Origin: Natronorubrum tibetense GA33
GTDB taxonomy: Archaea > Halobacteriota > Halobacteria > Halobacteriales > Natrialbaceae
Direction: 5' to 3'
NCBI RefSeq assembly: GCF_000383975.1
Contig: NZ_KB913017.1
Location: forward strand, 627,133 to 691,132
DNA length: 64,000 bases
Shown here: in pieces, positions 26,379-60,227 of the stretch
Layout of the letters: each line of letters begins with the position of its first letter
Numbering within the stretch: the first letter of the stretch is position 1
Notes under the pieces: model-generated
Told to the model about the DNA's origin: nothing
Databases searched by the model: none
What the model saw: only the letters and a program-made list of their open reading frames with translations
Position numbers and translations under genes: made by a program

Positions 26379-28013
26379 ATGTCGGAACGAAGTGGTATGC
26401 AGCGTTCGAATCGGAAGGATTCTCTGCGAACTCGATCCGCCCGTTGGGATGACGGTCACGAATCGAGAGATTCCCGAACACGACGAACGTTTTTACGTGG
26501 TGTTGCGGCCACCGGGGCCGCTGGAATCGGTTTGACGTCGACCGCCGGAGCGGCCTCGGAACCGTACGCTCAGTACGACGACGACTACCGAAACGTCGTC
26601 GACGTCGTCGACGCAGGTGCAGACAACACCGGCGAGGAACCGATCACCCCCGTTCTCGAGGAGCTACGAGCCGACGACACACTGCTCGTATTCCCGGAAG
26701 GGCGGTACTACATGGACGAACAGTTCCGGTTCAGCGGATTCGACAACTTCGGCGTCGTGGGTGACGATGCGACGCTGGTCCCGGCGAACTATTACGACTT
26801 CGCCGGCCCGCAGTACAGGCTGTTTCGGCTCGGCGTCTCGTACAGTCCCGGCGGTCACCTCCGATTCGAGGGGTTCGATGTCGATCAACGCGCTCCCGAC
26901 ACGGGAATTCGGGTCATCGAAGCCAACGCCGCCGACCGACTCGAGGTACGTGACGTAACCGTCTACGGCCAACACGACAGCGGTACGTGGGGTCCCGGGC
27001 TGTTCAACATCACCGATTCCGACGGCTGGGGGATCGTCGAACGCTTCCGCGCGCCGGACGGCGGCGCTTGGATCAACGACACGCCCAACGCCGGCAACCG
27101 CTGGCGCGGTCCCATCGGTATCGAGGCCAATCAGAACGCGGGCACGCTCGAATTCAGGCGCTGCTGGCTCGGCGCCTTCCCGAACAACGGCCTGTACGCG
27201 GCAGGTGGCGACGGATCGATCGTCGTTCACGGCGGACTCTATGAAAATAGCAACGGCGCGAACGTCCGCGTCGGTGGACAGGGCAGCGAGATTCGGTGGC
27301 CGACAGTCAAAGTCGACGACACGCGTCCGGAAGACAAAACGCAGCGCGGAATTCGGGTCGAGAACGGGGAGAACGTAAAGATCCACGGCGCCGCCGTCGA
27401 GATCTCATCGCCGAAACCAACCAGTCACGCGATTTCGGTGATGAACTCCTGTGAGAGCGCCCGGATCGAGAATACGCGACTCGAACTGCGCGGTTCGGAC
27501 GTCAATCACGGTATCGTCCTCTCGCCGGAGTGCGGAGAGACCGTGATCGCCTCCACCAAGATCAGCCACGAGACGGCAGGCGGCTATCCGCTGTGGATCC
27601 GCGACAGCGATCGGACCGAGTCGGTCCTCGCCGAGAACCTCACGATTTCGGGCGAAGCGGGCGACGCCAGCGGCCTTCGAGACGGCATTCGCTGTGAGCG
27701 AGACAACTGTCGGTTCAGCCACGTCGACATCAGTCAGCACGGTCGCGACGGCGTCGATCGGAACGCGATCGTCAACACGGGCGACGATGTGACCGTCTAC
27801 CGGAGCGACCTGCGTGCCAGCCAGTATCCCTTCGTCGACCTGGGAGCTGACACGCTCGTTCGCGACTCCGACCTCGAGTCGTCGGGCGACGACGAGGCCG
27901 TCTGTCTCTACGCGTCCGCGGAGAATCCGACGTTCAAGAAGAACCGACTGGTCGACGGGATTCGAGACCTCGGTGCGAGCGGGGTTACGACCTGGGAGAA
28001 CAGCTACGAGTAG
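26379..28013 (+). CDS. Tat-exported right-handed beta-helix (pectate-lyase-like) protein
   Basis: 544 residues. TRRTFLRGVAATGAAGIGLT (about residues 35-54) is a Tat signal, placed after a ~30-residue Arg/Ser-rich N-terminal stretch; later ATGs are possible starts. The mature part begins with DVVDAGADNTGEEPITPVLE, the opening of pectate-lyase/polygalacturonase-type helices, and continues with many short parallel-strand repeats such as RLEVRDVTVYGQHDSG, SIVVHGGLYENSNGANVRVG, ARIENTRLELRGSDVNHGIV and DDVTVYRSDLRASQYPFVDL. No catalytic set could be assigned. It is the first gene of the glycan island and probably binds or cuts polysaccharide outside the cell. Confidence 0.82.
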   Translation: MSERSGMQRSNRKDSLRTRSARWDDGHESRDSRTRRTFLRGVAATGAAGIGLTSTAGAASEPYAQYDDDYRNVVDVVDAGADNTGEEPITPVLEELRADDTLLVFPEGRYYMDEQFRFSGFDNFGVVGDDATLVPANYYDFAGPQYRLFRLGVSYSPGGHLRFEGFDVDQRAPDTGIRVIEANAADRLEVRDVTVYGQHDSGTWGPGLFNITDSDGWGIVERFRAPDGGAWINDTPNAGNRWRGPIGIEANQNAGTLEFRRCWLGAFPNNGLYAAGGDGSIVVHGGLYENSNGANVRVGGQGSEIRWPTVKVDDTRPEDKTQRGIRVENGENVKIHGAAVEISSPKPTSHAISVMNSCESARIENTRLELRGSDVNHGIVLSPECGETVIASTKISHETAGGYPLWIRDSDRTESVLAENLTISGEAGDASGLRDGIRCERDNCRFSHVDISQHGRDGVDRNAIVNTGDDVTVYRSDLRASQYPFVDLGADTLVRDSDLESSGDDEAVCLYASAENPTFKKNRLVDGIRDLGASGVTTWENSYE

Positions 28014-28183
28014 ATCGATACGGCTGGAGAAAGTGCCAATAACGCTCTCGAGAGGCCATTTAACACCCGTATAATAACGCCTCGCAGTCGCCACCGTACT
28101 GATACTGTGAGCACGGTGGACGCTGAACGACCGTCGGCGAGGGGGGCCGTCGACTCTCGGCTCGAACGCTCCCGAGGGATCGC

Positions 28184-29815
28184 GTGAACCGAAGCATCGC
28201 GAGCGGCGTCTTCTCGGTCGTCAGCGCGAAGGTCGTCGTACTCGTCCTCACCGCGATTTCGACGCCGTTGCTGTACCGGTTTCTCGGTGCGTCGGGGTAC
28301 GGCGAGTACGCCTTCTTGATGTCCGTCTTCGCGATCTACATGATCTTCGTGAGTTCCGGGATTACCGACGGTGTCCGGAAGTTCCTCGCCGAGGACCGCA
28401 ACGCGACGAACTGGAGCGAACACGTCGTCGGCTTCTACTTTCGGCTGGCGGTCGGTCTCGCCGCCGTCGGTGCCGTGTTACTGGTACTCGCCGCCCAGTT
28501 CGGCGTCGTCAGCATCGCTTTCGGCGAGGAGTTCACGATATACTTCTACGTTCTGGCCGTCCTCGTCGTGACGGCGCAGTTTCGGGACTACGCCCGAAAG
28601 ACGCTCATGGGGTTCGGACTCGAGCGATACTCCGAGCCGCTGAAGATCCTCGACAAGGTCGGGTTCGTCGCCGTCGCGCTTCCGCTCGCGTACGTGTTCG
28701 GCGTGATGGGCGCACTCGCGGGCCACCTGGCCGCGAGCCTGCTCGTGGCCGTCGCCGGACTGATCATCGTCCACCGTCGGATCTCGCTGTCGTGTATTTA
28801 CAGCAAGCCGACGGAGCGATTCCCGCGTACGAAGATGCTCACGTTCAACTCGATGAGCATCGTCCTCGTCTTTCTGCTGATGTCGCTCTACCACATCGAC
28901 ATCGTGATGCTCCAGCACTTCCGGGAGAGCGCGGACGTGGGCAACTACCGGGCGGCGCTGGTGCTCGCCGAATTCCTCTGGTTCGTCCCGCTGGCGATCC
29001 AGACCGTCTTCGTCCACTCGACTTCCGAACTCTGGTCGCAGAACCGCCACCGGAAGATCTCGGAACTCGCGTCGAAGGCGACGCGGTACACGTTCCTGTT
29101 GACGGCCGTCATGGCGGTCGGGCTCGCGGCGCTGGCCGACGTGGCCGTGCCGATCTATTTCGGCTCGGAGGCGACGCCGGCGATCGCTCCCCTCCTGTTG
29201 TTGCTCCCCGGCGCGCTCGGTTTCGCGCTCGCGCGGCCGATTCTGGCGGTCTCGCAAGGCGAAGGGACGCTTCGATACCCGGTCGCGGCCACCGCTGCGG
29301 CGGCGCTGATCAACGTCGTCCTCAACGTCGCGCTCATCCCGCGCTACGGGATGCACGGCGCGGCCGTCGCGACCAGCGTCGGCTACGGGACGATGTTCGT
29401 CTTCCACTGTTGGGCCGCCCGACACGTCGGCTTCGATCCGCTCGCGGACGCTCGAATCGGTCGAGTGGCGCTGACGACAGTCCTCGCTGGCGCCCCCATC
29501 GTCGCCCTCGCGACGGCGATCTCGAGTCCGTGGCTTGCCCTCGCCGTCGTCCCGCCCGTCGGCTTTGCCATCTTCGTCGCCTTCGCGCTCCTCGTCGGCG
29601 CGCTCGATCCGGCGGAGCCGTTCGAGGTGCTGTCGATCTTCCCCGATCCGATCGGCTCGATGGCCGCGTCAATCCAGGGGCGACTCGAAGGGGACGGCGA
29701 CGGCCAGCCGCGCAGTTGGTACCAACACCTGCTGTTCGTCGCCGGCCTGTCGCTGCTCGTCTCGGGGCTCGCGCTGGGGGTGCTGGAAACGGATGCGCTG
29801 TTGGTCTCTCCCTGA
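28184..29815 (+). CDS. Polysaccharide/oligosaccharide flippase (Wzx/MATE-like)
   Basis: 543 residues from GTG 28184, with GAGGGA just upstream as ribosome-binding site. About 12-14 membrane helices follow the MOP-superfamily pattern: an N-terminal NRSIASGVFSVVSAKVVVLVLT helix, GASGYGEYAFLMSVFAIYMIF, and the typical central DIVMLQHFRESADVGNYRAALVLAEF segment. Such proteins move lipid-linked sugars across the membrane. The last ~60 residues carry an acidic cytoplasmic linker and one further helix. It lies next to glycosyltransferases and gives the island its export step. A TATA-like CCGTATAATAAC is at about 28070. Confidence 0.88.
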   Translation: MNRSIASGVFSVVSAKVVVLVLTAISTPLLYRFLGASGYGEYAFLMSVFAIYMIFVSSGITDGVRKFLAEDRNATNWSEHVVGFYFRLAVGLAAVGAVLLVLAAQFGVVSIAFGEEFTIYFYVLAVLVVTAQFRDYARKTLMGFGLERYSEPLKILDKVGFVAVALPLAYVFGVMGALAGHLAASLLVAVAGLIIVHRRISLSCIYSKPTERFPRTKMLTFNSMSIVLVFLLMSLYHIDIVMLQHFRESADVGNYRAALVLAEFLWFVPLAIQTVFVHSTSELWSQNRHRKISELASKATRYTFLLTAVMAVGLAALADVAVPIYFGSEATPAIAPLLLLLPGALGFALARPILAVSQGEGTLRYPVAATAAAALINVVLNVALIPRYGMHGAAVATSVGYGTMFVFHCWAARHVGFDPLADARIGRVALTTVLAGAPIVALATAISSPWLALAVVPPVGFAIFVAFALLVGALDPAEPFEVLSIFPDPIGSMAASIQGRLEGDGDGQPRSWYQHLLFVAGLSLLVSGLALGVLETDALLVSP

Positions 29816-31154: not shown

Positions 31155-32243
31155 CTACTGCACTTGCATCTCGAGGTGCTCGCTCTCGGCCATGTCGAAC
31201 ACCATCGCGAACAGCAGGAACGCGATACCGGCGACGAGCAAGAGCACGGTCGTCGATCCCCCGACAAGCGCGCCGAGACTCGAGACCGCGGCGAGCAGCG
31301 TTGTGCCGGTAGCGAGGACGCCCGCGCCCGCCAACCCGGCGCCCACGAGGTAGAACAGCGCGAGCGGGTGGAAATCCAGCGCGAGGTACTTTGTCTTCAG
31401 CCGCCAGAGAAAATTCTGAAGCAGCATCGTCGACACCTTTGGGATGTAACTCGAGTACTGGATGCTCGATTCCTCGTCGCCGTAGACGGCCGGCATCGCG
31501 ACGTCTGCGACCCGCATGCCGTGGACGTTCAGCTTCACCAGCAGGTCGTTGCAGTAGCCGTAGTACTCATAGAGGTTCTCGAGGTCGACCGCCTCGAGCG
31601 CGTCGTTCGAGATGGCCGTGTAGCCGTTCTGGGGGTCCATCGTCTTCCAGTAGCCCGAGGCGATCTTCGTCAGGAAGGTCAGAATCGCGTTGCCGACGAA
31701 CCGAAATCGCGGCATCGCGGCCCGGTATTCCCGTGAGAGGAGTCGGTTCCCCTTCGCGTAGTCTGCCTCGCCGTCGGCGATCGGATCGAGGAGTCGCGTC
31801 ATCTGGGAGAGGTCCATCTGACCGTCCGCGTCGACGGTGACCGTCGCGTCCACGCCGTCCTCGAGGGCCGCGAGGTAGCCGGTCTTGATCGCTCCGCCGG
31901 CACCGAGGTTCTCTCGGTGTCGAATGGGGACGACGCGGCCGATGGGGTCGCGTACCGACGCTCGTTTGGCGAGCGCGGAGATGTCGCCGTCGAGCGTCGC
32001 TCGTTTCCCCGAGAATCCGCCGTCGGCAACGAGTCGCTCCTCCCTGCTCGAGTCGGACGACCCGTCGGAATCCGCGTCCGCTCGGGCCGCCTCGAGGATC
32101 TCGTCCCAGGTGCCATCGGTTGACTGGTCGTCGATGGCGTAGATCCGGTCGACGTAGTCGGGCATCTCGCGGATCACGTCGCCGACGAACCCCTCCTCGT
32201 TGTAGGCGGGCATCACGACGCCGACGCTCGCGTCTCGATACAT
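31155..32243 (-). CDS. Family 2 glycosyltransferase, DPM/GtrB-like, with two C-terminal membrane helices
   Basis: 362 residues. SVGVVMPAYNEEGFVGDVI starts the GT-A fold, YAIDDQSTDGT is the nucleotide-sugar binding motif and VTVDADGQMD is the metal-binding DxD region. An acidic insertion of about 45 residues lies after the first domain (about 55-100). Two long hydrophobic helices (LALFYLVGAGLAGAGVLATG; VLLLVAGIAFLLFAMVF) end the protein, as in dolichyl-phosphate sugar synthases, so it probably loads a sugar onto a lipid phosphate. Its ATG overlaps the stop of the deacetylase-like gene upstream (TGATG), linking the two translationally. Confidence 0.87.
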   Translation of the reverse strand: MYRDASVGVVMPAYNEEGFVGDVIREMPDYVDRIYAIDDQSTDGTWDEILEAARADADSDGSSDSSREERLVADGGFSGKRATLDGDISALAKRASVRDPIGRVVPIRHRENLGAGGAIKTGYLAALEDGVDATVTVDADGQMDLSQMTRLLDPIADGEADYAKGNRLLSREYRAAMPRFRFVGNAILTFLTKIASGYWKTMDPQNGYTAISNDALEAVDLENLYEYYGYCNDLLVKLNVHGMRVADVAMPAVYGDEESSIQYSSYIPKVSTMLLQNFLWRLKTKYLALDFHPLALFYLVGAGLAGAGVLATGTTLLAAVSSLGALVGGSTTVLLLVAGIAFLLFAMVFDMAESEHLEMQVQ

Positions 32244-33502
32244 CAGCTCCCCTCCAGGAGCTCCGAGGCGGTCACGACCTCGACGTCGGCGTCGTCGACG
32301 TGCTCGAGGAGCTCCTCGAAGTCGTCCGTCGATAGCCCGTCCTCGCCGATGTGTTCGAAGTGCAAGACGGCGAGTTGGCCGTACTCGGCGGCGCGGTCGA
32401 TGTACCGTTTCGTCGTCTCGCCGTCGCTGCCGGAGAAGACGCCGACGTTGTGCGGGTCCGAAAGCGGGAGGGCGTTCGGCCCGCCGCCGTAGCGGAACGC
32501 TTGCTCGTGGTACTCCCGGACGAGGTCGATCGTCTCCGGGCCGAGGACGTTCCGCGGCGTGACGAAGTGTCGTGCGCCGTCCTCGAAGCCGCGATTCTCG
32601 AGGAACGCCTTCGTTCGCCTGATCGCCCCCTCCTGTTCCGCCGGCGAGTAGTCGTGGAGGAACTGCGCGCCGGTTCGCGGCCGCGCCGCCATATCCCAGC
32701 CGGCGGCGTCTAACTCCTCGAGCTGGTCGATCGTGAGCCGATCGGACTCCCCCAGCGCCTCGTAGATTACGGCCTCGACGCCGGCGAAGTCGTACGCGGC
32801 CATCGGCTCGAGCGCGTGCTCGTAGTGGCTCTCGAGCGTGCCGTCGAACAACAGCATCACCTTCCCCGTCTCGGGTCGGTCGACGGCCCGGAGGTCGTCG
32901 ATCCGACAGTCGATCGAGCCGGACTGATCGCCCCGACGACGAGCCGTCAGGCGGATCTCGCGGACGTCCGTGAGGTCGGGATCGCCGTCGACGTCGCTGG
33001 TACCGAAGTCGACGCGCACCCAGCGATCGGTCGGCCCGGTGAGGGTACGCTCCATCGCGTACGCGTTCCGGGAGTTCGGGGCGTGCAACTCGAGGGTGAG
33101 GTGTAGCTGGTCGCGACCGCTGAAGTTGACGGCCAGCGAGAGGTTTCGGGCGGTCAGATCTACTCCGTCAGAGCGCACCTGATAGACGGCCGCCCGCTCG
33201 GTGTCTTCGGTCGCGCGGAGGCGAGCCGACTGCGACCCGGCGTAGGGGTCGTCCGTCTCGGTCTCGAGCGTCCCGGCATCGATCATCGACGCCCAGCTGT
33301 CGAGATCCTCGAAGTCCTCGATCGTCTCGCCCGGGAGGTCGAGGGACCCGTCACCGCCGTTCTCCTCGGGCGACCGTGCTTCGGCCGTCGGCTCGCTGCC
33401 ATCGTCGCGCCACTCGCGGACGGTCGAGAGACAGCCGGCGAGACCGATTGCCCCGGCCGTGCCGACGGCAGTCACGAACGATCGTCGGTTTCGATTCATC
33501 AT
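32243..33502 (-). CDS. Tat lipoprotein related to polysaccharide deacetylases, active site altered
   Basis: 419 residues. MMNRNRRSFVTAVGTAGAIGLAGC is a Tat signal with lipobox LAGC. After an acidic linker comes a beta-sandwich region (ARNLSLAVNFSGRDQLHLTLEL) and then a deacetylase-like NodB barrel starting KVMLLFDGTLESHYEHALEP. Compared with its relative at 37688-39019, the DDG metal motif is reduced to FDG and the HGTHTPIH metal His pair is replaced by a stretch with ARPRTG, so catalysis is doubtful. It may act as a binding or structural protein. It is translationally coupled to the downstream glycosyltransferase. Confidence 0.8.
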   Translation of the reverse strand: MMNRNRRSFVTAVGTAGAIGLAGCLSTVREWRDDGSEPTAEARSPEENGGDGSLDLPGETIEDFEDLDSWASMIDAGTLETETDDPYAGSQSARLRATEDTERAAVYQVRSDGVDLTARNLSLAVNFSGRDQLHLTLELHAPNSRNAYAMERTLTGPTDRWVRVDFGTSDVDGDPDLTDVREIRLTARRRGDQSGSIDCRIDDLRAVDRPETGKVMLLFDGTLESHYEHALEPMAAYDFAGVEAVIYEALGESDRLTIDQLEELDAAGWDMAARPRTGAQFLHDYSPAEQEGAIRRTKAFLENRGFEDGARHFVTPRNVLGPETIDLVREYHEQAFRYGGGPNALPLSDPHNVGVFSGSDGETTKRYIDRAAEYGQLAVLHFEHIGEDGLSTDDFEELLEHVDDADVEVVTASELLEGS

Positions 33503-33694: not shown

Positions 33695-34684
33695 ATGACT
33701 CGCGTCAGCGTCATCATCCCGACGTACAACAGAGCGACGACGCTTCCACGGGCGATCGACAGCGCACTCGCACAGACGGTCGACGACCTCGAGGTCGTCG
33801 TCGTCGACGACGGCTCGACCGACGACACCGACTCGGTGCTCGCCGAGTACGACGACCCGCGAGTTCGGCCGGTCGTCCACGCGACCAACCAAGGGGCGAA
33901 CGTCGCCCGGAACACGGGGATCGACCACGCCCGCGGCGAGTACGTCGCCTTCCTCGACTCCGACGACGAGTGGCGTTCCGAGAAGCTCGAGCGACAGCTC
34001 GAGACCCTCGAGGATCGCTCGGACGAGTGGATCGGCGTCTACTGCGACGCGGTGTTCGAGCTGTCGGGGACGGACGGCTGGTTCCGATCGACGGCCGCAA
34101 CCGTCCTCGCTCGCGGGGACGACCGACCAACGATGGAGGGCGGCGAGGAACTGATCGGCGAGATCCTGGCGGACAACGTCCAGCCGGGTGCCGGCTCGAC
34201 ATTGGTCGTTCGAACCGATGTCGCCCGTGATATCGGTGGGTGGGACGAACAACTCGACCGGTTTCAGGACCCCGAGTTCTGCCTGCGGGTGCTCGAGGCG
34301 GGCAACCTCGCGTACGTCGACGAGGAACTCGTCGTCCGCGAAGAGACGGCCATCCCGCCAGCGGATGTCATCAAAAACGCGGACGAACAGTACCTGTCGA
34401 TGTACGACGAGACGGTCGAGCGCTTCGAGAGCGAGGGCTACGAGATTCGCTCGAGCCACCAGCTCATCCTCGCGAAGTGTTACTTCTCGGAGGGGCGACT
34501 CCTCCGCGGCCTCTGGCACCTCCGGAAGGCTGCGCCGTCGCGGCGGCAGTATCCGGGACTCTGCTGGGCCGCCGGCGTCGGCGTTCGACAGCGACCGGTT
34601 CCGATCGTCGCGACGGTCGCATTCGTTCTTGTAGCGATCATCCTGACGCAGACGTGCGTCGCTCGTCGCGTGTTCACCGACTAG
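33695..34684 (+). CDS. Family 2 glycosyltransferase
   Basis: 329 residues. The GT-A fold is clear: RVSVIIPTYNRATTLPRAI, VVVDDGSTDDT, NTGIDHARGEYVAFLDSDDEW (DxD in LDSDD). GGWDEQLDRFQDPEFCLRVL supplies the acceptor-side catalytic region. A C-terminal hydrophobic helix (PIVATVAFVLVAIILTQT) may tether it to the membrane. It starts the plus-strand run with the ATP-grasp gene. Donor and acceptor sugars are unknown. Confidence 0.88.
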   Translation: MTRVSVIIPTYNRATTLPRAIDSALAQTVDDLEVVVVDDGSTDDTDSVLAEYDDPRVRPVVHATNQGANVARNTGIDHARGEYVAFLDSDDEWRSEKLERQLETLEDRSDEWIGVYCDAVFELSGTDGWFRSTAATVLARGDDRPTMEGGEELIGEILADNVQPGAGSTLVVRTDVARDIGGWDEQLDRFQDPEFCLRVLEAGNLAYVDEELVVREETAIPPADVIKNADEQYLSMYDETVERFESEGYEIRSSHQLILAKCYFSEGRLLRGLWHLRKAAPSRRQYPGLCWAAGVGVRQRPVPIVATVAFVLVAIILTQTCVARRVFTD

Positions 34685-34834
34685 CGCTGTCCTGCCGACA
34701 CGAGTACGTGTCGCCGTTAGACAATGACGTAGTATCCGTTGTTTTACTGGCTGAAACGATACGGAGATCACTCTCGAGCGTGCAACGGTCTTGCCGAATC
34801 GATAACTAACCCGCTCTCTCCGGCAGGGTGTGAC

Positions 34835-36046
34835 GTGAACGTCAGAACACTCTACCACACGGCCAGAGGGCTACAGGACCTCGCAGCGACCGAACGCGAG
34901 TCGGCCGCCTCGCCATCGCTTCGGCGTCGGCTCTGGCTCTGGCGGCGGGGCTTTCTGAGCCGCTCCGACGCCGTCTACGATCTCGACGAGTCGACGTATC
35001 GGGACTACCTGAACGACTATCGGCGATTCGTCCGAACCAAGCAGATCAACGGCACGTGGTCGATCGCGCTGTCGAACAAACTCCTCTTCCACCGCGTGAT
35101 GCAGCCGTTCGACGACCACCGAATGGGCGTCTACGGCATGATCCGCAACGGTTCGTTCCACAGCGTCGACGGGGGCGATAGCCGACGCGAGGTGACCGAC
35201 GGTGGCGCGGTCGTCCCGACCGAAAGCGAGAGTGAGGGCGAAACCGATTCGCGGGAAGCTGCCGCGCGTCGGAACGCGAACGTTGCCGAGCGACGGGACT
35301 CGAATCATCCTGATCCGCGCTCGTCCGCGGAAACCCGCAACGCCGCCCAGCGCGTCGTCGAACGACTCGAGAGCGACGGTCGGCTGGTCCTCAAATGGGT
35401 TCGCGGCGGTGGCGGGAACAACGTCCTCCTGTGTGAACGCACGGACGACGGCTACCGGGTGAACGGCGACTGCTACGCGGAGGTCGAGTTCAGATCGCTG
35501 GTCTCGGACCTCGAGGAGTACCTCGTCTGTGAGTACGTCGAACAGGGTTCGTTTGCGGACGGCCTCTACGCGGAGACGCCGAACACGATCCGAATCATCA
35601 CGATGTACGACGAGGAGCGCGACGAGCCGTTCATCGCCGCGGCGATCCAGCGGATCGGGACGGCGGACTCCGCGCCGCTGGATAACTTCACGCAGGGCGG
35701 TCTCTCCGCGGAGATCGACCTCGAGACGGGCGAACTCGGTCCCGGCGTGAGCCCGCCCGGCGACGGCGACCTCGAGTGGCACGCGGTCCACCCCGAGACG
35801 AAGACGCCCGTCGAGGGCGCCCACATTCCCGGCTGGAGCGAGATCCGCGAGCGAGTTCTCGAGATGGCAGATACCTGTTCGTTCGTCCCCTACGTCGGTT
35901 GGGACATCATCGTCACGGGCGACGACGGCGAGTTCTCGGTGATCGAGGCGAACAGCTACCCCGGACTCAAGTCGATCCAGGTTCACGGGCCGTTGCTGAC
36001 GGACGACCGAGTTAGGCGGTTTTACGAGCGCCACGGCGTCCGGTGA
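34835..36046 (+). CDS. Sugar-transfer-associated ATP-grasp protein
   Basis: 403 residues from GTG 34835 (a start at 34739 is open but encodes an untypical N-terminus). RRLWLWRRGFLSRSDAVYDL and SNKLLFHRVMQPF are typical of the sugar-transfer-associated ATP-grasp family. The ATP-grasp core is visible as RLVLKWVRGGGGNNVLLCE (Lys and Gly-rich loop), YLVCEYVEQ, NTIRIITMYD and the metal-binding end VIEANSYPGLKSIQ. A ~60-residue polar insertion (about 115-180) separates the N-terminal part from the core. These enzymes are found in polysaccharide clusters and probably form an amide or ester between a carboxylate and a sugar component, but the reaction is not established. Confidence 0.82.
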   Translation: MNVRTLYHTARGLQDLAATERESAASPSLRRRLWLWRRGFLSRSDAVYDLDESTYRDYLNDYRRFVRTKQINGTWSIALSNKLLFHRVMQPFDDHRMGVYGMIRNGSFHSVDGGDSRREVTDGGAVVPTESESEGETDSREAAARRNANVAERRDSNHPDPRSSAETRNAAQRVVERLESDGRLVLKWVRGGGGNNVLLCERTDDGYRVNGDCYAEVEFRSLVSDLEEYLVCEYVEQGSFADGLYAETPNTIRIITMYDEERDEPFIAAAIQRIGTADSAPLDNFTQGGLSAEIDLETGELGPGVSPPGDGDLEWHAVHPETKTPVEGAHIPGWSEIRERVLEMADTCSFVPYVGWDIIVTGDDGEFSVIEANSYPGLKSIQVHGPLLTDDRVRRFYERHGVR

Positions 36047-36222: not shown

Positions 36223-37503
36223 ATGCAACGGAACTCACTTTCACGACGGACAGCACTGTCACTTACGGCCGGTTCCGTCCTCGCGGGTATCGGTGCCACC
36301 ACGGCGAGCAGCGAGACCGACGAGGGGGTCTCACGGGAGTCGTTCGAGATACTCGAGGGAACGGACCACGAGACGACAGTACACGTCACGACCGCGCAAG
36401 CAGACGGCCCGACGGTCGTCGTCGTCGGCGGCGTCCACGGTAACGAGGTCGCCGGCTACGTCGCCGCGCACGAGATCGCCGACTGGACGATCGAGGCTGG
36501 CACGCTCGTCACGATTCCCGAGGCGGACGCCGTCGCGGTCGATCGCGGAATACGGACGGGCGAGGAGGGAGTCGACCTGAATCGCCAGTTCTCCGAAGGC
36601 AGCGAGCCGGAGACGAAACTCGCGCGAGCGCTGTGGGACGTCGTCGCGGAATCCGATCCCGACGTGGTCCTCGACCTCCACGAGTCGACAGGGATCTACG
36701 CGGGCAACCCCGTCGATGGCGTCGGACAGGCGATCTTCCACTCGGACGGCGACGGCGCTCCGGCTACAGCGGCGGAGGCCGCTGACTACGTTACGCGGAA
36801 CTACGTGGACGATCCCGATCTCGCGTTCCAGACCGGTCGGTTTTCCGGACCCAACAACGATCCACAGGGGCTTCTCGTCCACAAGGCCGCTCGAGACCTG
36901 GACGCCGACGCGTACCTCGTCGAGACGCTGTCGACCGATGTCGACCTCGAGACCCGCGTTCGGTGGCACTCGGTGATCGCCGAGCGACTCGTCGAAGACG
37001 AGTTGTTCCCCGAGGAGGTGCCCGAAAACGGCCACGTTCCCGACGATTCCGACGATGACGCCGAGGAGCCGGTAAACGACCCGGATGATGAATCCCCGGA
37101 CGAAACGGACGACGAACCCGAGGAGACGGACGACTCTGACGAGCCGGTCGAAGAGCAGCCCAACGACGAAACGCCGGACGAAGCGGACGACGCGCCGGAC
37201 GACGAGACCGACGCGCCGGACCGTGACTCGCTAACCGCGACGATCACGACCGATCCGAGCAACGCGGACGAGCTGTCGCTCGAGTCCGGCCAGACAATCG
37301 TCCTCGACGGCTCGCGTTCGTGCGTGCCGGGTGGCGAAATCGTCTGCTACGAGTGGGACGTCGGCCACGATGGCTGCTTCGACGCGACCGGTGAGACGCT
37401 TGAGGTGACGATTAGTGCGAACGGCGAGCACACAGTCGTGTTGCGCGTAACCGACGATACCGGGGCGACTGCCGGGGAGGCGATCACGTTCTCGGCGAGT
37501 TGA
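36223..37503 (+). CDS. Tat-exported M14 (AstE/AspA-type) deacylase with acidic linker and PKD domain
   Basis: 426 residues from ATG 36223. SRRTALSLTAGSVLAGIGATTAS is a Tat signal. The catalytic domain has the zinc motif GGVHGNE (H72, E75), the substrate-binding DLNRQF (~residue 116) and DLHES (~151) with the third zinc ligand, the set found in succinylglutamate desuccinylase/aspartoacylase enzymes. An Asp/Glu/Pro-rich linker (about 268-335) joins it to a PKD-like beta domain (EIVCYEWDVGHDG, HTVVLRVTDDTGATAGE), a domain often used for binding at the cell surface. Family members are normally cytoplasmic, so export with a PKD domain is unusual. Role inferred: removing N-acyl groups or hydrolysing amides outside the cell. 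Confidence 0.82.
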   Translation: MQRNSLSRRTALSLTAGSVLAGIGATTASSETDEGVSRESFEILEGTDHETTVHVTTAQADGPTVVVVGGVHGNEVAGYVAAHEIADWTIEAGTLVTIPEADAVAVDRGIRTGEEGVDLNRQFSEGSEPETKLARALWDVVAESDPDVVLDLHESTGIYAGNPVDGVGQAIFHSDGDGAPATAAEAADYVTRNYVDDPDLAFQTGRFSGPNNDPQGLLVHKAARDLDADAYLVETLSTDVDLETRVRWHSVIAERLVEDELFPEEVPENGHVPDDSDDDAEEPVNDPDDESPDETDDEPEETDDSDEPVEEQPNDETPDEADDAPDDETDAPDRDSLTATITTDPSNADELSLESGQTIVLDGSRSCVPGGEIVCYEWDVGHDGCFDATGETLEVTISANGEHTVVLRVTDDTGATAGEAITFSAS

Positions 37504-39019: not shown

Positions 39020-39239
39020 GTACGGGTCGAAGGTATCGACAGTGACTCCATTATTATAGAGACGATAGCTCCCGATCACCCACCGTTCAGATCACCGCTG
39101 TGGGGCCACCTCGGAGCTTAACAATGGCATAGTTAACGACCGCAGGTCCGGAGGTGGAACCAATCAGGCGTACGTGCGTGGCGATCGATCGAACGGATCG
39201 GTCGTTGTCTCTCGTACGTCGGCAAAGTGATCTTCGACG

Positions 39240-48096: not shown

Positions 48097-48103
48097 GAGT
48101 AGG

Positions 48104-49168
48104 TTAGCGTAGCGTCGTCGCCGGCGTCGGATTCGCTTCGCGTGCACGCGCGTGAGATTCAATCTGCTCTACGACGAACGCCGTCACGTCGATCCGCTCC
48201 TCGAGCAGACGTTCGCGTCGTTCGGCCCACGTTTCGGCGGACGCCGCGAGGACGTCGTCGATCGCCTCGAGCGCTCGAGCGTGGCGGTCGTCGCCGTTGC
48301 AGCCGAACAGCAGTCCGTACTCGGCTTCGAGTTCGGCGGTGTAGCCGAGCGAGAGCGGGTTGACGTACACAGCCGGCGTACCGAGCACCGCGGCCTCGGT
48401 CGCGGTCGTCGCGCCCTCGCTAACGACGATCTCGGCGTGGGCGAGCAGATCGTGCAACCGTTCCGGTCGCGTCGAGAACTGGTAGGGTTCGAGGTCGGCC
48501 GGTGGCTCGCCCTCCGCCGAGAGCAACACCTCGAGACCGCTTTCCTCGAGTCGATCGATCGCCTCGCGCGGATCGTCGAAGCCGCCGTGGCCGACGTCGT
48601 GGGAGGCCTCCCAGCTACTGAGTCGAACGACGGCGAACGAGTCGTCCGGATCGAGGCCGACCGACTCGAGGACGGCTGGATCGGGATCGAACCGATTCGG
48701 GTGGAGGTAGGCGAGTTCGTGATACCCGGGATAGCGAACCTGGCTCGAACCGACGTCGTCACGGTAGCACGCCGGCGTACAGATCGCGTCCGCGAACGGG
48801 TAGGCGAGTTTCGTGATGAGTGTCGCGTGTTCGGTGTCGTAGAAGACGACGCTCTTCGTTCGCAAGACGGACGCGACGTGGGCGGCGGCAACGCCGCCGA
48901 TAGCCGTGATGACGTCCGGATCGATCCGTCGCGCCCGGGCCAGCAGCCGCGTCTCGTAGGTCGCCTGCACGGTGGCCAGCGAGAGCAGCGAGTCGGACTC
49001 GCCGGCGAGCACCTCGTGGTCGATATCGTACGCCTCGAGCAGCGCGATGGCTACGTCGCTCTCGCGAGCGAAGACGTGGACCTCGTGTCCTCGAGCGTCC
49101 AGTTCCTCGATCGGGTTCCGGAAGAAATGGACGTGCCCGGGGTGTTGAATCGTAATCACGACTCGCAT
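48104..49168 (-). CDS. DUF354 (GT-B-like) protein
   Basis: 354 residues. MRVVITIQHPGHVHFFRNPI and the conserved YDTEHATLITKLAYPFAD, VRLSSWEASHDVGH and SEGATTATEAAVLGTPAVYVNPLS are hallmarks of DUF354, a family with the fold of UDP-GlcNAc 2-epimerases and family 4 transferases. It may act as a glycosyltransferase or an epimerase. It starts 6 nt after the nucleotide-sugar dehydrogenase gene and is followed by the family 4 transferase gene, so it belongs to the same transcript. Confidence 0.85.
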   Translation of the reverse strand: MRVVITIQHPGHVHFFRNPIEELDARGHEVHVFARESDVAIALLEAYDIDHEVLAGESDSLLSLATVQATYETRLLARARRIDPDVITAIGGVAAAHVASVLRTKSVVFYDTEHATLITKLAYPFADAICTPACYRDDVGSSQVRYPGYHELAYLHPNRFDPDPAVLESVGLDPDDSFAVVRLSSWEASHDVGHGGFDDPREAIDRLEESGLEVLLSAEGEPPADLEPYQFSTRPERLHDLLAHAEIVVSEGATTATEAAVLGTPAVYVNPLSLGYTAELEAEYGLLFGCNGDDRHARALEAIDDVLAASAETWAERRERLLEERIDVTAFVVEQIESHARAREANPTPATTLR

Positions 49169-50907: not shown

Positions 50908-51558
50908 GTGAAACACATGGTTTCAACTTCCCAGATCGAACTCGGACCCGCGTTCGCCTCGATACACGCCAGCGTGTCCTCGAGTACGGGTTCGGTGCCG
51001 ATTCGTCGACTCGACGTCCAGACGTTCGCATCGGTAACCCCCACCGATAGCGATCAGTTGGGTGGACCGGTATCCTGGCTGTCGATGCTACGCGGCGCGT
51101 CGGGCTGGGAAGCGGCGATGATCGCGGTTCTGTTCTTACTGATCAGCGGACTCGTCGGCATCCGCCTGCGAGAACTGCTGTCGAACCGCGAGGTCCAACT
51201 CGCTACGCACTCGCTGCTCGGTCAGTCAGCGGACGAGTCGGGTGAGATAACAGGCTCACCCACCGACGATCACCGACCCTACGAACAGTATCTCTCACCC
51301 GAGACACCGACCGAACTCCTGAGCGACAAGGGAGAAGTGGTTCGACTGCTCGTCGCAAATCACGGCCGCATTCGCCAACACCAGATCGCCGACGAAACGG
51401 GCTGGTCGAAGTCGAAAGTGAGCCGAATCTGCTCGCAGATGCACACCGACGGCACGATCGAGAAGACCTCGGTCGGCCGAGAGAATCTCATCACCCTGTC
51501 CGATCGAGAGCCGGAGACGGAAACGCAGCGTACCGACACCGAAAAACCGCTTCAGTGA
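50908..51558 (+). CDS. Membrane-anchored helix-turn-helix regulator
   Basis: 216 residues from GTG 50908 (ATG 50917 is equally possible). A ~60-residue extracytoplasmic N-terminus, a single helix (AAMIAVLFLLISGLVGIRL, about residues 69-87), then a linker and a winged-helix: LSDKGEVVRLLVANHGRIRQHQIADETGWSKSKVSRICSQMHTDGTIEKTSVGRENLITL. This arrangement is common in haloarchaeal membrane regulators. Divergent from the nucleotide-sugar dehydrogenase operon, so control of that operon is a plausible but unproven role. Confidence 0.8.
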   Translation: MKHMVSTSQIELGPAFASIHASVSSSTGSVPIRRLDVQTFASVTPTDSDQLGGPVSWLSMLRGASGWEAAMIAVLFLLISGLVGIRLRELLSNREVQLATHSLLGQSADESGEITGSPTDDHRPYEQYLSPETPTELLSDKGEVVRLLVANHGRIRQHQIADETGWSKSKVSRICSQMHTDGTIEKTSVGRENLITLSDREPETETQRTDTEKPLQ

Positions 51559-54661: not shown

Positions 54662-54755
54662 ACTCACAGTCCCTTACCGAACGGCAAAATATCATCGAGA
54701 TATCACGTCTCGGTATCCGTGTTCTCTGTACTGACCGCAACCGGATCTGAGTATG

Positions 54756-56736: not shown

Positions 56737-57720
56737 CTATTTCGCGAGTCGGTGGTCGTTCACCCGGTCGAACTGGGTATGAGTGATCGTGTCACGAACG
56801 GATCGAACCAGGCCGAGTGCTGACGTGCCAAGAACGGCGAAACAGCAGATCGCGAGGCTGGTGGGCGACGGGCGGTTTTTCGTGGCCTCCCACCCGTACC
56901 GAAGTGCCCGCCGTCGGTTGTCGCGCTCGATCTCCGTCCACCCCCAGGAGAGGTGTCGGTCGTACCGCAGTTGCCGTTCGATTTCTGGGTGGCGGTCGAT
57001 CTCCTCGCGGTACTTCGACCAGATCTGCCCGAAGATATCCGCGGTCCCGTCGAGTTCGAGTTGCAGGCGATCCGTCCGCTCGATCGCGGCCGCCGCCGAC
57101 ACGTTCGAGTCATGGAAGTGCCGAACGACCAGTGGCTCGTCTACGTACTCGTACTCGTACTCGCGGGCGATCCGAATCGCGTGATCCCAGTCTTCTCCGC
57201 AATCGAAATTCGTATCGTAGTCTCCGACCGTCTCGAAACAGTCGGCGCGGATCATATGACTCGAGTAGGGTTTGAGATCGAACTGCGCGAGGATCTCCGG
57301 ATAGATATCGCCGCGGATCGACGGCGTGTAGGTACCAACTGTTCGGTCGTTCTGGCGGACGAGACCACCGGTGTAGACGACGCCGCAGTCCGAATTAGCC
57401 TCCATGACGGCGAGCTGTTTTTCGACCTTCCGGGGGTCCCAGCGATCGTCGTCGTCCAGAATACAGACGTACTCGCCGTGGGCCCGCTCTATCGCTAGGT
57501 TTCTGCTCGCCGCGATTCCGAGTCGCTCGTCGTTGTAGAACGGCCGAACGCGGTCGTCGTCGTCGTACTGCTCGAGGACGGCCCGCGTCTCTTCGACGGG
57601 CGGATCGCAGACGATCACGACTTCGATCTCGTCGTGGGTCTGGGCGAGCGCTGTTTCGATTGCACCCTCGACGAACGAGTGGCGGTCGTAGGTGGGAATA
57701 ATCACGCTGACGAGCGTCAC
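56737..57720 (-). CDS. Family 2 glycosyltransferase
   Basis: 327 residues. LVSVIIPTYDRHSFVEGAI and VVIVCDPPVEETRAVL start the GT-A fold, SRNLAIERAHGEYVCILDDDDRWD holds the DxD motif, and DYDTNFDCGEDWDHAIRIAREYEYEYVDEPLVVRHFHDSN is the acceptor region. Hydrophobic stretch SLAICCFAVLGTSALGLV near the C-terminus may contact the membrane. The acidic motif and Trp-rich part match others in this island. Monocistronic; sugar unknown. Confidence 0.88.
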   Translation of the reverse strand: MTLVSVIIPTYDRHSFVEGAIETALAQTHDEIEVVIVCDPPVEETRAVLEQYDDDDRVRPFYNDERLGIAASRNLAIERAHGEYVCILDDDDRWDPRKVEKQLAVMEANSDCGVVYTGGLVRQNDRTVGTYTPSIRGDIYPEILAQFDLKPYSSHMIRADCFETVGDYDTNFDCGEDWDHAIRIAREYEYEYVDEPLVVRHFHDSNVSAAAAIERTDRLQLELDGTADIFGQIWSKYREEIDRHPEIERQLRYDRHLSWGWTEIERDNRRRALRYGWEATKNRPSPTSLAICCFAVLGTSALGLVRSVRDTITHTQFDRVNDHRLAK

Positions 57721-58069
57721 GACCGTGACTCACCCGTCGAACGTCGCTGGTGGAGAGCGGTGTGCCTACGCGCAACTGAACACATATCATGAACCATCGT
57801 CCAGGAATACTTATCCGTGAACGTGATTCTCAGGAGGTGATGAGACCTTGCTGTGGGTATCGTTCGATTTATGAACAAAGTCGGGCTAATCGACCATAAT
57901 TCGGGCGGGGACGGGACGGGACGGCCGTTCGTAGCGGGACTGCGAAACCGTCTCGAGCCAGCTACTGTGCGTCTCCGGTGACGGTCGTCTGCAGAATGCT
58001 GTCCCTACTTTTTGCGGTTCGTCCTAACTGACTGAACAACGGTCGAGACTGACATCATTTCCGATCACT
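57721..58069. other. Divergent promoter region between two glycosyltransferase genes
   Basis: No gene seen. TATA-like runs occur near 57808 (minus strand, GATAAGTATT) and several AT-rich words follow to 57900. Confidence 0.45.
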
Positions 58070-59056
58070 ATGAACGGACACAACACACACGGTGAGCCGC
58101 GAGGAAATGGCGCGGAGGGCGGGAAGTGGGCTATAGATGCGGGCGAGTGGCCGCAGGTGTCGGTCGTCGTCCCCGTCTACAACGATCCGACGGGGCTCCG
58201 GGATACGCTCGATTCGCTGGTCGAACAGACGTATCCGACCGACGCCCACGAGGTGCTCGTCGTCGACAACGGTTCGACGGACGAAACGCCGACCGTCGCG
58301 AGGGAGTTCGCAGACGAGTACGAACAGATAACCGCTCTCGCTGAGGACGAGGTCCAGAGCTCCTACGCGGCGCGAAACAAGGGCATCGAGCACGCGAGCG
58401 GTGAGATCCTCGCGTTCGTCGACGCGGACATGACCGCCGGGGACGAGTGGCTCGTCGACGCCGTCGACGCGTTCGAACGGGCCGATGCCGAGTACGTGGG
58501 CTGTAACGTCGAGATGGTGCCCTCCGAGGACGGCGACTCGCTGGCGGAACGGTACAACTTGCAGACCGGGTTTCCCATCGATCACTTCGTCGAGAATCTC
58601 GGGTTCGCACCGACGTGTTGCCTACTCGTCCACCGATCCGTGATCGACGACGTCGGACCGTTCGACTCGCGGCTGCTCTCCGGCGGAGACCGGGAGTTCG
58701 GTCACCGAGTTCGCGACTCCGGCCGAGAGCTCCAGTTCGCACCGGACGCGACGATCTACCACCCGACGCGGTCGACGGCCGACGCAATTTTGCGAAAGTC
58801 GCGACGCGTCGGCCGCGGCGTCTACCAGCTACGCGCGTTCCACCCCGATCGATACGACAGTGCGGTTCCGGTCGCGCTCAATCCCGTTCCGTACCTTCCG
58901 CCGCGACCCGACCGAGTCCGCAGCGTCGACGGCTGGAACGAACTCTCTCGCCGGGAAAAAGCGGGCTTTTACCTGCTGTCCTACGCACGCGGGATCTGCA
59001 ACGGGTTAGGTCGGCTCGAGGAGACGGCCCGGAGACGCGCGAGCGCGTTGCGGTGA
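58070..59056 (+). CDS. Family 2 glycosyltransferase
   Basis: 328 residues. VSVVVPVYNDPTGLRDTLDSL, VLVVDNGSTDETPTVARE and ILAFVDADMTAGDEWL (DxD in VDADM) are the GT-A core; GPFDSRLLSGGDREFGHRVRDSG is the catalytic acceptor region. The N-terminal ~27 residues are a variable leader. The C-terminal part (PRPDRVRSVDGWNELSRREKAGFYLLSYARGICNGLGRLE) is a helical extension typical of polysaccharide-synthesis transferases. Convergent with the FkbM gene. Confidence 0.88.
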   Translation: MNGHNTHGEPRGNGAEGGKWAIDAGEWPQVSVVVPVYNDPTGLRDTLDSLVEQTYPTDAHEVLVVDNGSTDETPTVAREFADEYEQITALAEDEVQSSYAARNKGIEHASGEILAFVDADMTAGDEWLVDAVDAFERADAEYVGCNVEMVPSEDGDSLAERYNLQTGFPIDHFVENLGFAPTCCLLVHRSVIDDVGPFDSRLLSGGDREFGHRVRDSGRELQFAPDATIYHPTRSTADAILRKSRRVGRGVYQLRAFHPDRYDSAVPVALNPVPYLPPRPDRVRSVDGWNELSRREKAGFYLLSYARGICNGLGRLEETARRRASALR

Positions 59057-59153
59057 GTTCGGGCCGAGGCTCGAACGCCACTCACGTCGATTGGTGTGTA
59101 CCGTCGCCTCGCGGCGATTCCTCGACGCGAGCGTACTCGAAGAGATCGTCGAC

Positions 59154-60227
59154 TTACTTCCGTGCGATTAGTTCGATCGAGTGATCGCTCTCGGCCATCG
59201 CCCGTCGAAGGTCGTCGAAGGTCTCGACGCCGCACTCGAGGCCGTGCCAGCGTCGCGCGTCCGACACCCCGGCGGCGGCGTCCGTCCGAACCGCCGAGAC
59301 GACCTCGAACCCGTTCGCTGCGAAGCGTTCGACGACCGCCGCCTTCGATTCCGGCGAGAGATCGAGCGGGTGCAGTTCGACGTAGACGACCGTCGGCCCT
59401 GGCGCTTCCAGGACGTCGGTCAGGCCCTCGAGCACCGCGGACTCGTACCCCTCGACGTCGAACCGGACGACGTTGATCGAGGCGGGCTCGATGTCGCAGT
59501 CAGTGAGATACCGATTTCCGGTGGTCTGTTCGACCGAGATCGTCTCGCGCTCGGCGTCCTCGAGCGTCGTTGTCGACGAGGCGCTGTCCGCTGCCGACGA
59601 AACGCCGTCCGCCGCTGCGGAGCTTGCGCGAACCTGGTGTTGGTTCGAGTGCGTACTCAACTCCATCTCGACTGTCCGCTGCTCGTCGCCGAAGGCGAGT
59701 TGATCGACATCCGCGAGGTGGGCGTACCCGTTACGCTCGAGATTATGCTCGAGGAGGGCGACGTTCGACGGAATCGGTTCGACCGCGTGGATCCGCGCCC
59801 GGTCGCCGAGGATTCCGGCTTCCATGGTACTGAAGTAGCCGATGTTCGCGCCCACCTCGAGGACGCAAACGGGGCCGTCGACGGTCGCCGCGAGGCGCTC
59901 GAGTTCGCGCTCGAAGACCGTCGACGAGCGGTACTCGTGGACGCCGTAGGCGAGCAGCGTCCGCGAGATGCCGGCGTCGGTGGTGTCGACGACCAGCTCG
60001 TGATCACCGACTGAAAGGGCCTGGTAGCGTCGGTCCTCGAGTCGGAACGCATAGTAGGGGTTTCGTCCGGTCGCCAGTTCTGCCACCGAGCCGACGGCCG
60101 CACCGATTCGACCGGTGCGCAGGAGGCGGCCCAGCTTTCGGGCTTCCAGACCCAGATACTGTGCGATCTGCGGTGCGTCGTCGAGCACCGACCGGACGCG
60201 TTTCGCGGACGTACGTGTCGCAGTCAT
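59154..60227 (-). CDS. FkbM-family SAM-dependent methyltransferase
   Basis: 357 residues. VCVLEVGANIGYFSTMEAG is the SAM-binding motif I, HAVEPIPSNVALLEHNLERNG motif II, and INVVRFDVEGYESAVLEGL the FkbM signature with the acidic residue of the active site. VVYVELHPLDLS and CGVETFDDLRRAM complete the domain. An N-terminal ~100-residue helical part precedes the catalytic domain. FkbM enzymes O-methylate sugars and polyketides; here the setting suggests a glycan hydroxyl. Confidence 0.88.
   Translation of the reverse strand: MTATRTSAKRVRSVLDDAPQIAQYLGLEARKLGRLLRTGRIGAAVGSVAELATGRNPYYAFRLEDRRYQALSVGDHELVVDTTDAGISRTLLAYGVHEYRSSTVFERELERLAATVDGPVCVLEVGANIGYFSTMEAGILGDRARIHAVEPIPSNVALLEHNLERNGYAHLADVDQLAFGDEQRTVEMELSTHSNQHQVRASSAAADGVSSAADSASSTTTLEDAERETISVEQTTGNRYLTDCDIEPASINVVRFDVEGYESAVLEGLTDVLEAPGPTVVYVELHPLDLSPESKAAVVERFAANGFEVVSAVRTDAAAGVSDARRWHGLECGVETFDDLRRAMAESDHSIELIARK

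What the first reader, a model, noticed from the sequence alone, without database searches (positions are those of the whole stretch)
26379..60227. Large haloarchaeal glycan island with an unusual set of modifying enzymes
Over ~34 kb there are a flippase, at least five glycosyltransferases (three GT2, a DPM-like GT2, a GT4), a GT-C membrane protein, a DUF354 protein, a nucleotide-sugar dehydrogenase, GlmS, an FkbM methyltransferase, a sugar-associated ATP-grasp, an asparagine-synthase-like protein, two deacetylase-like lipoproteins, an exported deacylase and a beta-helix protein. The combination of carboxylate-activating enzymes (ATP-grasp, AsnB-like) with an exported deacylase suggests an amidated or aminoacylated uronic-acid/amino-sugar polymer not obviously matching known N-glycosylation (agl) clusters.
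Basis: partly seen in the sequence, partly recalled or inferred. Interest (0 to 1): 0.65.

Follow-up and report, generated by a model that had tools for sequence, protein, structure and literature searches.

The report
Conserved haloarchaeal surface-sugar gene locus
A block of about 15 genes for building a cell-surface sugar polymer recurs, largely intact, in about a third of salt-loving archaea, and its unusual amide-forming enzymes predict a chemically modified sugar acid that nobody appears to have looked for.

Summary
The gene list is real. The window is from Natronorubrum (Natrialbaceae). The island is not a strain-specific oddity. Most of 25-54 kb is syntenic across the family, and a core (dehydrogenase, DPM-like GT2, DUF354, GT4, GT-C, GlmS, AsnB-like, plus flippase, DUF1616 and beta-helix) recurs in Haloferax, Haloarcula, Halalkalicoccus and others. 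In 322 class genomes, all 95 with the AsnB-like protein also carry the GT-C protein, 80 of them within 15 kb. The only STT3/AglB is 2.3 Mb away, so this is not an aglB-linked cluster.

The carboxylate-activating idea is partly supported. The AsnB-like protein has the AsnB/beta-lactam-synthetase fold and an intact ATP loop, but no glutaminase cysteine in any of 64 orthologs, so it probably uses ammonia or an amine. The ATP-grasp is accessory (12 of 33 Natrialbaceae loci), but ATP-grasp enzymes are found near AsnB in several lineages, and Haloferax uses a different ATP-grasp family. The exported hydrolase is accessory too, and one of the two "deacetylases" has lost its motifs.

Best reading: an uncharacterised, class-wide pathway for a hexosaminuronic-acid surface glycan carrying amide substituents. 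The polymer and the exact amide chemistry are inferred.

The parts
25011..25673 (+). HTH_10/BAT-type regulator; conserved left neighbour of the island
   Evidence: Pfam PF04967 + PF15915; lies next to bh in most Natrialbaceae stretches that reach it
26379..28013 (+). Tat-exported right-handed beta-helix protein (candidate uronan lyase or epimerase)
   Evidence: Pfam PF13229; twin-arginine leader; homologs in the Haloferax mediterranei locus 36-39%
28184..29815 (+). Wzx-type polysaccharide flippase
   Evidence: Pfam PF01943/PF13440; 30/33 Natrialbaceae loci, median identity 77%
31155..32243 (-). DPM-like GT2 with C-terminal membrane helices; candidate dolichyl-phosphate-sugar synthase
   Evidence: Pfam PF00535; best NCBIfam AglJ, below cut-off; DADGQ motif; only 22-25% identical to AepG
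32243..33502 (-). Tat lipoprotein, degenerate NodB-type paralogue
   Evidence: 30% identical to the 37688 protein; FDG instead of DDG and no HTxxH motif
33695..34684 (+). GT2 glycosyltransferase (gt2a)
   Evidence: Pfam PF00535; 33/33 Natrialbaceae loci
34739..36046 (+). ATP-grasp ligase of the sugar-transfer-associated type, accessory; ATP-grasp residues intact
   Evidence: PF14397 E=8e-32; K219, D389, E403, N405 invariant in 11 homologs; 12/33 Natrialbaceae loci
36223..37503 (+). Tat-exported AstE/AspA-type zinc hydrolase with C-terminal PKD domain, accessory
   Evidence: PF24827, PF18911; HGNE and DLHE motifs in 19/19; 20/33 Natrialbaceae loci and Haloferax
37688..39079 (-). Tat lipoprotein, NodB-type polysaccharide deacetylase with DDG motif
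   Evidence: PF01522 E=1.5e-10; DDG in 33/33; 32/33 Natrialbaceae loci
39240..40934 (+). AsnB-like ATP-dependent amide synthetase without glutaminase cysteine
   Evidence: AlphaFold pLDDT 84; Foldseek to AsnB, beta-lactam and carbapenam synthetases, TsnB9; 0/64 with Cys2, 64/64 with PP-loop
41679..42305 (-). DUF7344 winged-helix regulator
   Evidence: PF24035; 33/33 Natrialbaceae loci
42694..43692 (+). DUF1616 membrane protein
   Evidence: PF07760; 32/33 Natrialbaceae loci, also Haloferax
43693..44271 (+). YdjM-type membrane metal-dependent hydrolase
   Evidence: PF04307; also Haloferax
45159..47141 (-). GT-C (GT39-like) membrane glycosyltransferase
   Evidence: Foldseek to AftA, STT3/AglB, DPY19, ArnT; invariant D157-x-W-x-H, D-x-W-[TS]-H in 46/46
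47134..48162 (-). GT4 glycosyltransferase
   Evidence: PF00534/PF13439
48104..49168 (-). DUF354, GT-B-like glycosyltransferase
   Evidence: PF04007
49175..50575 (-). NDP-sugar dehydrogenase of UDP-HexNAc type
   Evidence: TIGR03026 above cut-off; TviB model 362 bits vs AglM 192; PDB best Cap5O and ManNAcA dehydrogenase; GGHCIPVDP catalytic Cys
50908..51558 (+). DUF7343 MarR-like regulator
   Evidence: PF24034
52333..54141 (+). GlmS, extra pathway copy (another copy in the genome at 3.17 Mb)
   Evidence: TIGR01135 715 bits; G000 has 3 matches, best at C1:3166970
56737..57720 (-). GT2 glycosyltransferase, variable right flank
   Evidence: PF00535; at this place only in G005, G006, G028
58070..59056 (+). 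GT2 glycosyltransferase, variable right flank
   Evidence: PF00535; at this place only in G005, G006, G028
59154..60227 (-). FkbM methyltransferase, variable right flank
   Evidence: TIGR01444 67.9 bits, above cut-off; at this place only in G005, G006, G028

Best explanation
The island is a conserved haloarchaeal locus for a cell-surface glycan that contains an N-acetylhexosaminuronic acid with amide substituents. Proposed route: a dedicated GlmS feeds UDP-GlcNAc, and the dehydrogenase oxidises UDP-HexNAc to UDP-HexNAcA. The DPM-like GT2 loads a sugar on dolichyl phosphate. DUF354, GT4 and GT2 enzymes build a lipid-linked oligosaccharide in the cytoplasm, and the flippase exports it. The GT-C protein then adds or polymerises dolichyl-phosphate-sugar units outside the membrane. 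The AsnB-like protein adenylates a carboxylate, most likely that of the uronic acid, and joins it to ammonia or to an amine without using glutamine, because its glutaminase site is gone. The ATP-grasp in some strains (a different ATP-grasp family in Haloferax) adds a further amino-acid-type amide. The exported AstE/AspA-type zinc hydrolase and the NodB lipoprotein trim amides or N-acetyls outside. Shown: gene content, synteny, co-inheritance, folds and conserved motifs. Inferred: substrates, order of steps, polymer identity.
For: Families and motifs. Synteny in Natrialbaceae and the core in other families. Co-inheritance: all 95 AsnB genomes have GT-C, 80 within 15 kb, and 0 of 203 genomes without GT-C have AsnB. 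The dehydrogenase is closer to TviB, Cap5O and ManNAcA dehydrogenases than to UDP-glucose dehydrogenase. GT-C fold. AsnB/beta-lactam-synthetase fold. ATP-grasp and AsnB are neighbours in 25 genomes against about 0.9 expected. A non-homologous ATP-grasp sits in the Haloferax locus together with AsnB and AspA. Precedent: an AsnB-type WbpS makes the uronamide of an amino-uronic acid (PMC7468200).
Against: No product has been analysed. The dehydrogenase passes only the subfamily cut-off, not an equivalog one. Haloferax gibbonsii ATCC 33959 carries the cassette (L129), yet its secreted EPS is neutral (PMC3191746), so either the product is another glycan or the locus is silent there. The AsnB-like protein might act on something other than the sugar. 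At the position of the AS-B Glu348 motif the conserved sequence differs (HGLLCDTFFRG); this comparison rests on recalled AS-B motifs. The Fisher P value ignores shared ancestry.
Confidence: 0.6

Rival explanations
1. The locus makes a lipid-linked glycan used for protein glycosylation (an agl-type pathway for a second N- or O-glycan), with the final transfer done by AglB encoded elsewhere or by the GT-C protein itself.
For: DPM-like GT2, GT-C, flippase and GT4 are the same enzyme classes as in agl pathways. The GT-C fold search finds STT3/AglB among its top hits.
Against: The only STT3 match in the genome is 2.3 Mb away. The GT-C protein does not match the STT3 Pfam model. Exported polysaccharide-modifying enzymes fit a polymer better. 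In Haloarcula hispanica the DPM-like AepG, encoded beside aglB, was shown to serve EPS and not N-glycosylation (PMC9943897).
Confidence: 0.2
2. The AsnB-like and ATP-grasp proteins do not modify the glycan. They make a small amide-containing metabolite or are catalytically inactive scaffolds, and only the glycosyltransferase genes matter.
For: No substrate can be read from sequence. The glutaminase half is inactive. The ATP-grasp is often absent. One Natronorubrum genome has a TAG inside asnB (G001).
Against: PP-loop intact in 64/64, ATP-grasp residues invariant, and AsnB is never found without GT-C. A dispensable scaffold would not be expected to attract ATP-grasp neighbours in separate lineages.
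Confidence: 0.15
3. The locus makes a rigid wall-like heteropolysaccharide with amino-acid bridges, comparable to the Halococcus wall, where N-glycyl-glucosamine links glycan strands; ATP-grasp and AsnB-like enzymes would make the two amide bonds.
For: The Halococcus wall contains glucosamine, uronic acids and N-glycyl-glucosaminyl bridges (PMC4187196). GlmS, a uronic-acid dehydrogenase, NodB-type lipoproteins and two amide-forming enzyme types are all present here.
Against: No Halococcus locus was identified: the genome first suspected to be Halococcus proved to be Halalkalicoccus jeotgali. Natronorubrum is not known for a wall of this kind (own knowledge). The ATP-grasp is optional.
Confidence: 0.1
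4. It is an ordinary strain-specific EPS island whose gene content is a random collection.
For: Accessory genes and the right flank do vary.
Against: The same order and set recur across genera and families, and AsnB and GT-C are co-inherited.
Confidence: 0.03

Closest known systems
Haloferax mediterranei ATCC 33500 megaplasmid pHME505 locus, 446-471 kb (L216); same in Hfx. gibbonsii LR2-5 pHGLR2 (L217)
   Same: Orthologous beta-helix proteins (36-39%), DPM-like GT2 52%, DUF1616, YdjM, dehydrogenase 56%, DUF354 49%, GT-C 45%, GlmS 60%, AsnB-like 45%, AspA-type hydrolase 41%
   Different: ATP-grasp is of another family (PF15632 with PylC-like N domain); second dehydrogenase, glmU and acyltransferase present; no NodB lipoproteins matched in the distant loci. 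H. mediterranei EPS contains GlcNAcA (PMC3191746), but I could not establish whether this locus makes it.
WbpA/WbpS pathway of bacterial amino-uronamides (Porphyromonas gingivalis, Pseudomonas aeruginosa, E. coli O121 WbqG)
   Same: UDP-HexNAc dehydrogenase plus AsnB-type enzyme making a uronamide (PMC7468200)
   Different: The haloarchaeal enzyme matches TIGR01536 weakly and not TIGR03108 and lacks the glutaminase Cys; no WbpB/D/E-type genes found in the island
Beta-lactam and carbapenam synthetases, TsnB9 hydroxyamidotransferase
   Same: Same two-domain fold as the AsnB-like protein. Beta-lactam and carbapenam synthetases form amides by adenylation without glutamine hydrolysis (own knowledge).
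   Different: 12-14% identity; natural-product substrates, not glycans
AepG / acidic EPS of Haloarcula hispanica
   Same: DPM-like GT2 making a dolichyl-phosphate uronic acid for an acidic EPS (PMC9943897)
   Different: The island's DPM-like protein is only 22-25% identical to AepG, and AepG lies in an aglB cluster
Campylobacter jejuni HS:2 capsule (amidated glucuronic acid)
   Same: A capsule whose uronic acid carries amides (abstract of PMC11800379)
   Different: Bacterial capsule; no homology tested
Halococcus cell-wall heteropolysaccharide
   Same: Amino sugars, uronic acids and N-glycyl-glucosamine (PMC4187196)
   Different: No shared genes demonstrated

Membership tests
Glutamine-dependent AsnB/WbpS amidotransferases | N-terminal catalytic Cys2 (glutaminase) | tested here: not met
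   0 of 64 orthologs have Cys2; Asn2 invariant in the 28-sequence alignment
Glutamine-dependent AsnB/WbpS amidotransferases | Synthetase PP-loop (SGGxDS) | tested here: met
   [SG][SAG]GxDSR in 64/64; fold match to AsnB and beta-lactam synthetase
Glutamine-dependent AsnB/WbpS amidotransferases | Match to TIGR03108 or TIGR01536 above cut-off | tested here: not met
   TIGR01536 34 bits against cut-off 267; TIGR03108 not hit
N-glycosylation (agl) cluster | aglB/STT3 oligosaccharyltransferase in or near the cluster | tested here: not met
   Single STT3 match at 2.985 Mb, island at 0.65-0.69 Mb
N-glycosylation (agl) cluster | AglJ, AglG or AglM orthologs | tested here: not met
   All below their NCBIfam cut-offs
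GT-C glycosyltransferases | GT-C multi-helix fold with acidic residue in the first external loop | tested here: met
   Foldseek E 3e-7 to AftA, plus STT3/AglB, DPY19 and ArnT; invariant D157. Model pLDDT is only 69
UDP-HexNAc 6-dehydrogenases (TviB/WbpA/WecC-like) | Closer to UDP-HexNAc than to UDP-Glc dehydrogenases, with catalytic Cys motif | tested here: met
   TviB 362 bits, AglM 192 bits; PDB best hits Cap5O and ManNAcA dehydrogenase; GGHCIPVDP present
UDP-HexNAc 6-dehydrogenases (TviB/WbpA/WecC-like) | Equivalog score above curated cut-off | tested here: not met
   TviB cut-off 592, score 362
Sugar-transfer-associated ATP-grasp (PF14397) | Pfam gathering score and intact ATP-grasp residues | tested here: met
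   111 bits against 31.4; invariant K219, D389, E403, N405
AstE/AspA (M14-like) zinc hydrolases | HxxE...H zinc ligands | tested here: met
   HGNE and DLHE in 19/19; PF24827 38 bits against 25
NodB polysaccharide deacetylases | DDG motif and H[ST]xxH motif | tested here: inconclusive
   37688 protein: DDG in 33/33 but HTxxH in 11/33 by a strict pattern; 32243 protein: FDG in 22/28, no HTxxH
AepG dolichyl-phosphate glucuronosyltransferase | Orthology to HAH_1206 | tested here: not met
   22-25% identity; AepG scores as high or higher against the island's gt2c

The most novel reading that the evidence does not exclude
A previously unrecognised archaeal glycan pathway in which an AsnB/beta-lactam-synthetase-fold enzyme that has lost glutaminase activity joins a (lipid- or nucleotide-linked) hexosaminuronic acid directly to an amine. 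ATP-grasp ligases of two unrelated families were recruited repeatedly to extend this, giving an aminoacylated or cross-linked surface polymer in about a third of haloarchaea.
Probability: 0.25. Interest if true: 0.75.

Novelty: new variant of a known kind. Interest (0 to 1): 0.52.

Why it matters
Little is known about how archaea make surface polysaccharides other than N-glycans. The locus defines a candidate pathway shared by about 30% of sampled haloarchaea (95 of 322 genomes have AsnB plus GT-C). It gives a testable chemical prediction, an amidated or amine-substituted hexosaminuronic acid. It also points to a well-studied host, Haloferax mediterranei, for which gene knockouts and an EPS structure already exist. 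If confirmed, it would add a glutamine-independent AsnB-type enzyme to glycan biosynthesis and help explain how haloarchaea tune surface charge in brine.

Tried and rejected
- Halococcus link: I suspected genome G049 was Halococcus because of its size and family. Megablast of its contigs showed it is Halalkalicoccus jeotgali B3, so the Halococcus wall analogy stays an untested analogy.
- AepG orthology: I found AepG in Haloarcula through the published primer sequence. It is not an ortholog.
- PDB sequence searches with the AsnB-like, GT-C and ATP-grasp profiles gave nothing meaningful (the RecA and GPCR hits are fusion or chance). Fold search was needed.
- Whether the Haloferax mediterranei EPS deletion strain removes this locus could not be settled from held papers.
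- Literature searches for this gene set in haloarchaea found no description.
- Considered and rejected: a random EPS island; an aglB-linked N-glycosylation cluster; a 2,3-diacetamido-uronic acid pathway (no WbpB/D/E-type genes in the island).
Full report
**What is there.** The window lies in a 4.93-Mb Natronorubrum genome, nearest to N. texcoconense (96% identity for the AsnB-like protein). The only STT3/AglB match in the genome is at 2.985 Mb, against 0.627-0.691 Mb for the window.

**Conservation in the family.** I fetched 20-kb stretches around the ATP-grasp gene in relatives and mapped all window proteins onto them. The order regulator, beta-helix, flippase, DPM-like, lipoprotein, GT2, [ATP-grasp], [AspA-type], NodB, AsnB-like, DUF7344, DUF1616, [YdjM], GT-C, GT4, DUF354, dehydrogenase, DUF7343, GlmS recurs in Natronorubrum and other genera at 55-82% identity. 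Brackets mark genes that come and go. In 33 named Natrialbaceae loci (+/-10 kb around the AsnB-like gene), AsnB-like, GT2 and DUF7344 are in 33, GT-C, DUF1616, DPM-like and NodB in 32, and GT4 and DUF354 in 31. The ATP-grasp is in only 12 and the AspA-type protein in 20; ten loci have neither. Genes at the outer ends are undercounted because the stretches stop at 10 kb. The right flank (two GT2 and FkbM, 56.7-60.2 kb) was found in place only in G005, G006 and G028.

**Conservation across the class.** In Haloarcula pellucida, Halomicroarcula, Halovivax, Halobellus and several Haloferax, the AsnB-like gene sits with GlmS and, in most, with the dehydrogenase, DUF354 and GT-C. In some of them the DPM-like gene is inside that operon. 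Larger stretches in two further genomes (G057, G168) and in Halalkalicoccus jeotgali carry nearly the whole set (identity of Halalkalicoccus). In a sample of 322 class genomes, GT-C orthologs occur in 119 and full AsnB-like orthologs in 95. All 95 also have GT-C, and 80 have the two genes within 15 kb. No genome without GT-C has the AsnB-like gene (0 of 203). The Fisher P value (about 3e-59) ignores shared ancestry, so I rely on the pattern, not the number. GlmS is not exclusive to the pathway: 301 of 322 genomes have one. The window's genome has three matches, so the island copy is an extra.

**Enzymes.** The AsnB-like model (pLDDT 84) matches AsnB, beta-lactam synthetase, carbapenam synthetase and TsnB9 over both domains. 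Position 2 is never Cys in 64 orthologs, while the ATP loop is intact in all. I therefore infer an adenylating amide synthetase that does not use glutamine. The GT-C model is weaker (pLDDT 69), but its best fold matches are all GT-C enzymes (AftA, STT3/AglB, DPY19, ArnT). D157 is invariant in 21 diverse sequences. The dehydrogenase scores best on TviB (362 bits) and worse on AglM (192), and its best PDB relatives are Cap5O and a ManNAcA dehydrogenase. This points to a UDP-HexNAc substrate, not UDP-glucose. The ATP-grasp keeps its expected residues. The AspA-type protein keeps its zinc motifs. Of the two lipoproteins, the one at 32243-33502 lacks the NodB metal motifs and is probably not a deacetylase; the two are paralogs (30%).

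**Does the amide chemistry hold together?** The ATP-grasp gene is accessory, but its association with AsnB is not chance. It lies within 25 kb of a full AsnB-like gene in 25 genomes, where random placement would give about one. Eight of these are outside the syntenic slot of the window, in several families. On the Haloferax mediterranei megaplasmid the homologous locus also has an ATP-grasp, between DUF354 and GT-C, but of another family (PF15632 with a PylC-like N domain), next to AsnB-like, GlmU and an AspA-type hydrolase. Hfx. gibbonsii LR2-5 has the same arrangement. It does not tell which carboxylate or amine is used.

**Best explanation and its limits.** I propose a surface glycan with an N-acetylhexosaminuronic acid, built on lipid carriers, extended outside by the GT-C protein from a dolichyl-phosphate sugar, and carrying an amide made by the AsnB-like enzyme. 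A bacterial precedent is WbpS, needed for the uronamide of an amino-uronic acid (PMC7468200). The DPM-like protein is not AepG, the known dolichyl-phosphate glucuronosyltransferase (22-25%), so its sugar is unknown. H. mediterranei EPS contains GlcNAcA (PMC3191746), which fits. However, Hfx. gibbonsii ATCC 33959, which carries the cassette (L129), secretes a neutral EPS, so the product may be a cell-bound glycan. I could not establish whether the published EPS deletion in H. mediterranei removes this locus.

But the set is widespread, not unusual to this strain, and two of the highlighted enzymes are accessory.

Noticed in passing
   Followed up: partly
30473-30991: A CBS-domain gene sits between the flippase and the DPM-like gene but is absent from all 33 Natrialbaceae loci examined: a local insertion.
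   Followed up: partly
44435-45040: The HAD hydrolase is found at this place only in N. texcoconense among the named Natrialbaceae loci, although a HAD homolog (41%) sits beside GT-C in the distant genome G057.
   Followed up: partly
55191-56102: Very acidic exported protein with two CarboxypepD_reg/PEGA repeats, next to the glycan locus and patchily conserved.
   Followed up: no
60454-61089: Strongly acidic protein with a repetitive PFDDGGPFDD tail, no family match.
   Followed up: no
L048 (G001) 13925-15664: The AsnB-like gene of one Natronorubrum genome has an in-frame TAG although its island is otherwise intact: pseudogene or sequencing error.
   Followed up: no
L074 (G004) and L091 (Halobiforma): Short remnants of the ATP-grasp gene (18% and 9% of its length) remain in the slot, showing repeated loss.
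   Followed up: partly
L216 and plasmid records: AsnB-like homologs lie on megaplasmids in Haloferax, Haladaptatus, Halorussus, Halomicrococcus and others, so the pathway may be mobile.
   Followed up: partly
L113, L114, L115, L125: A second, distant AsnB-like paralogue (23-26%) lies near the ortholog in Halogranum, Halocatena and Haloglomus.
   Followed up: no
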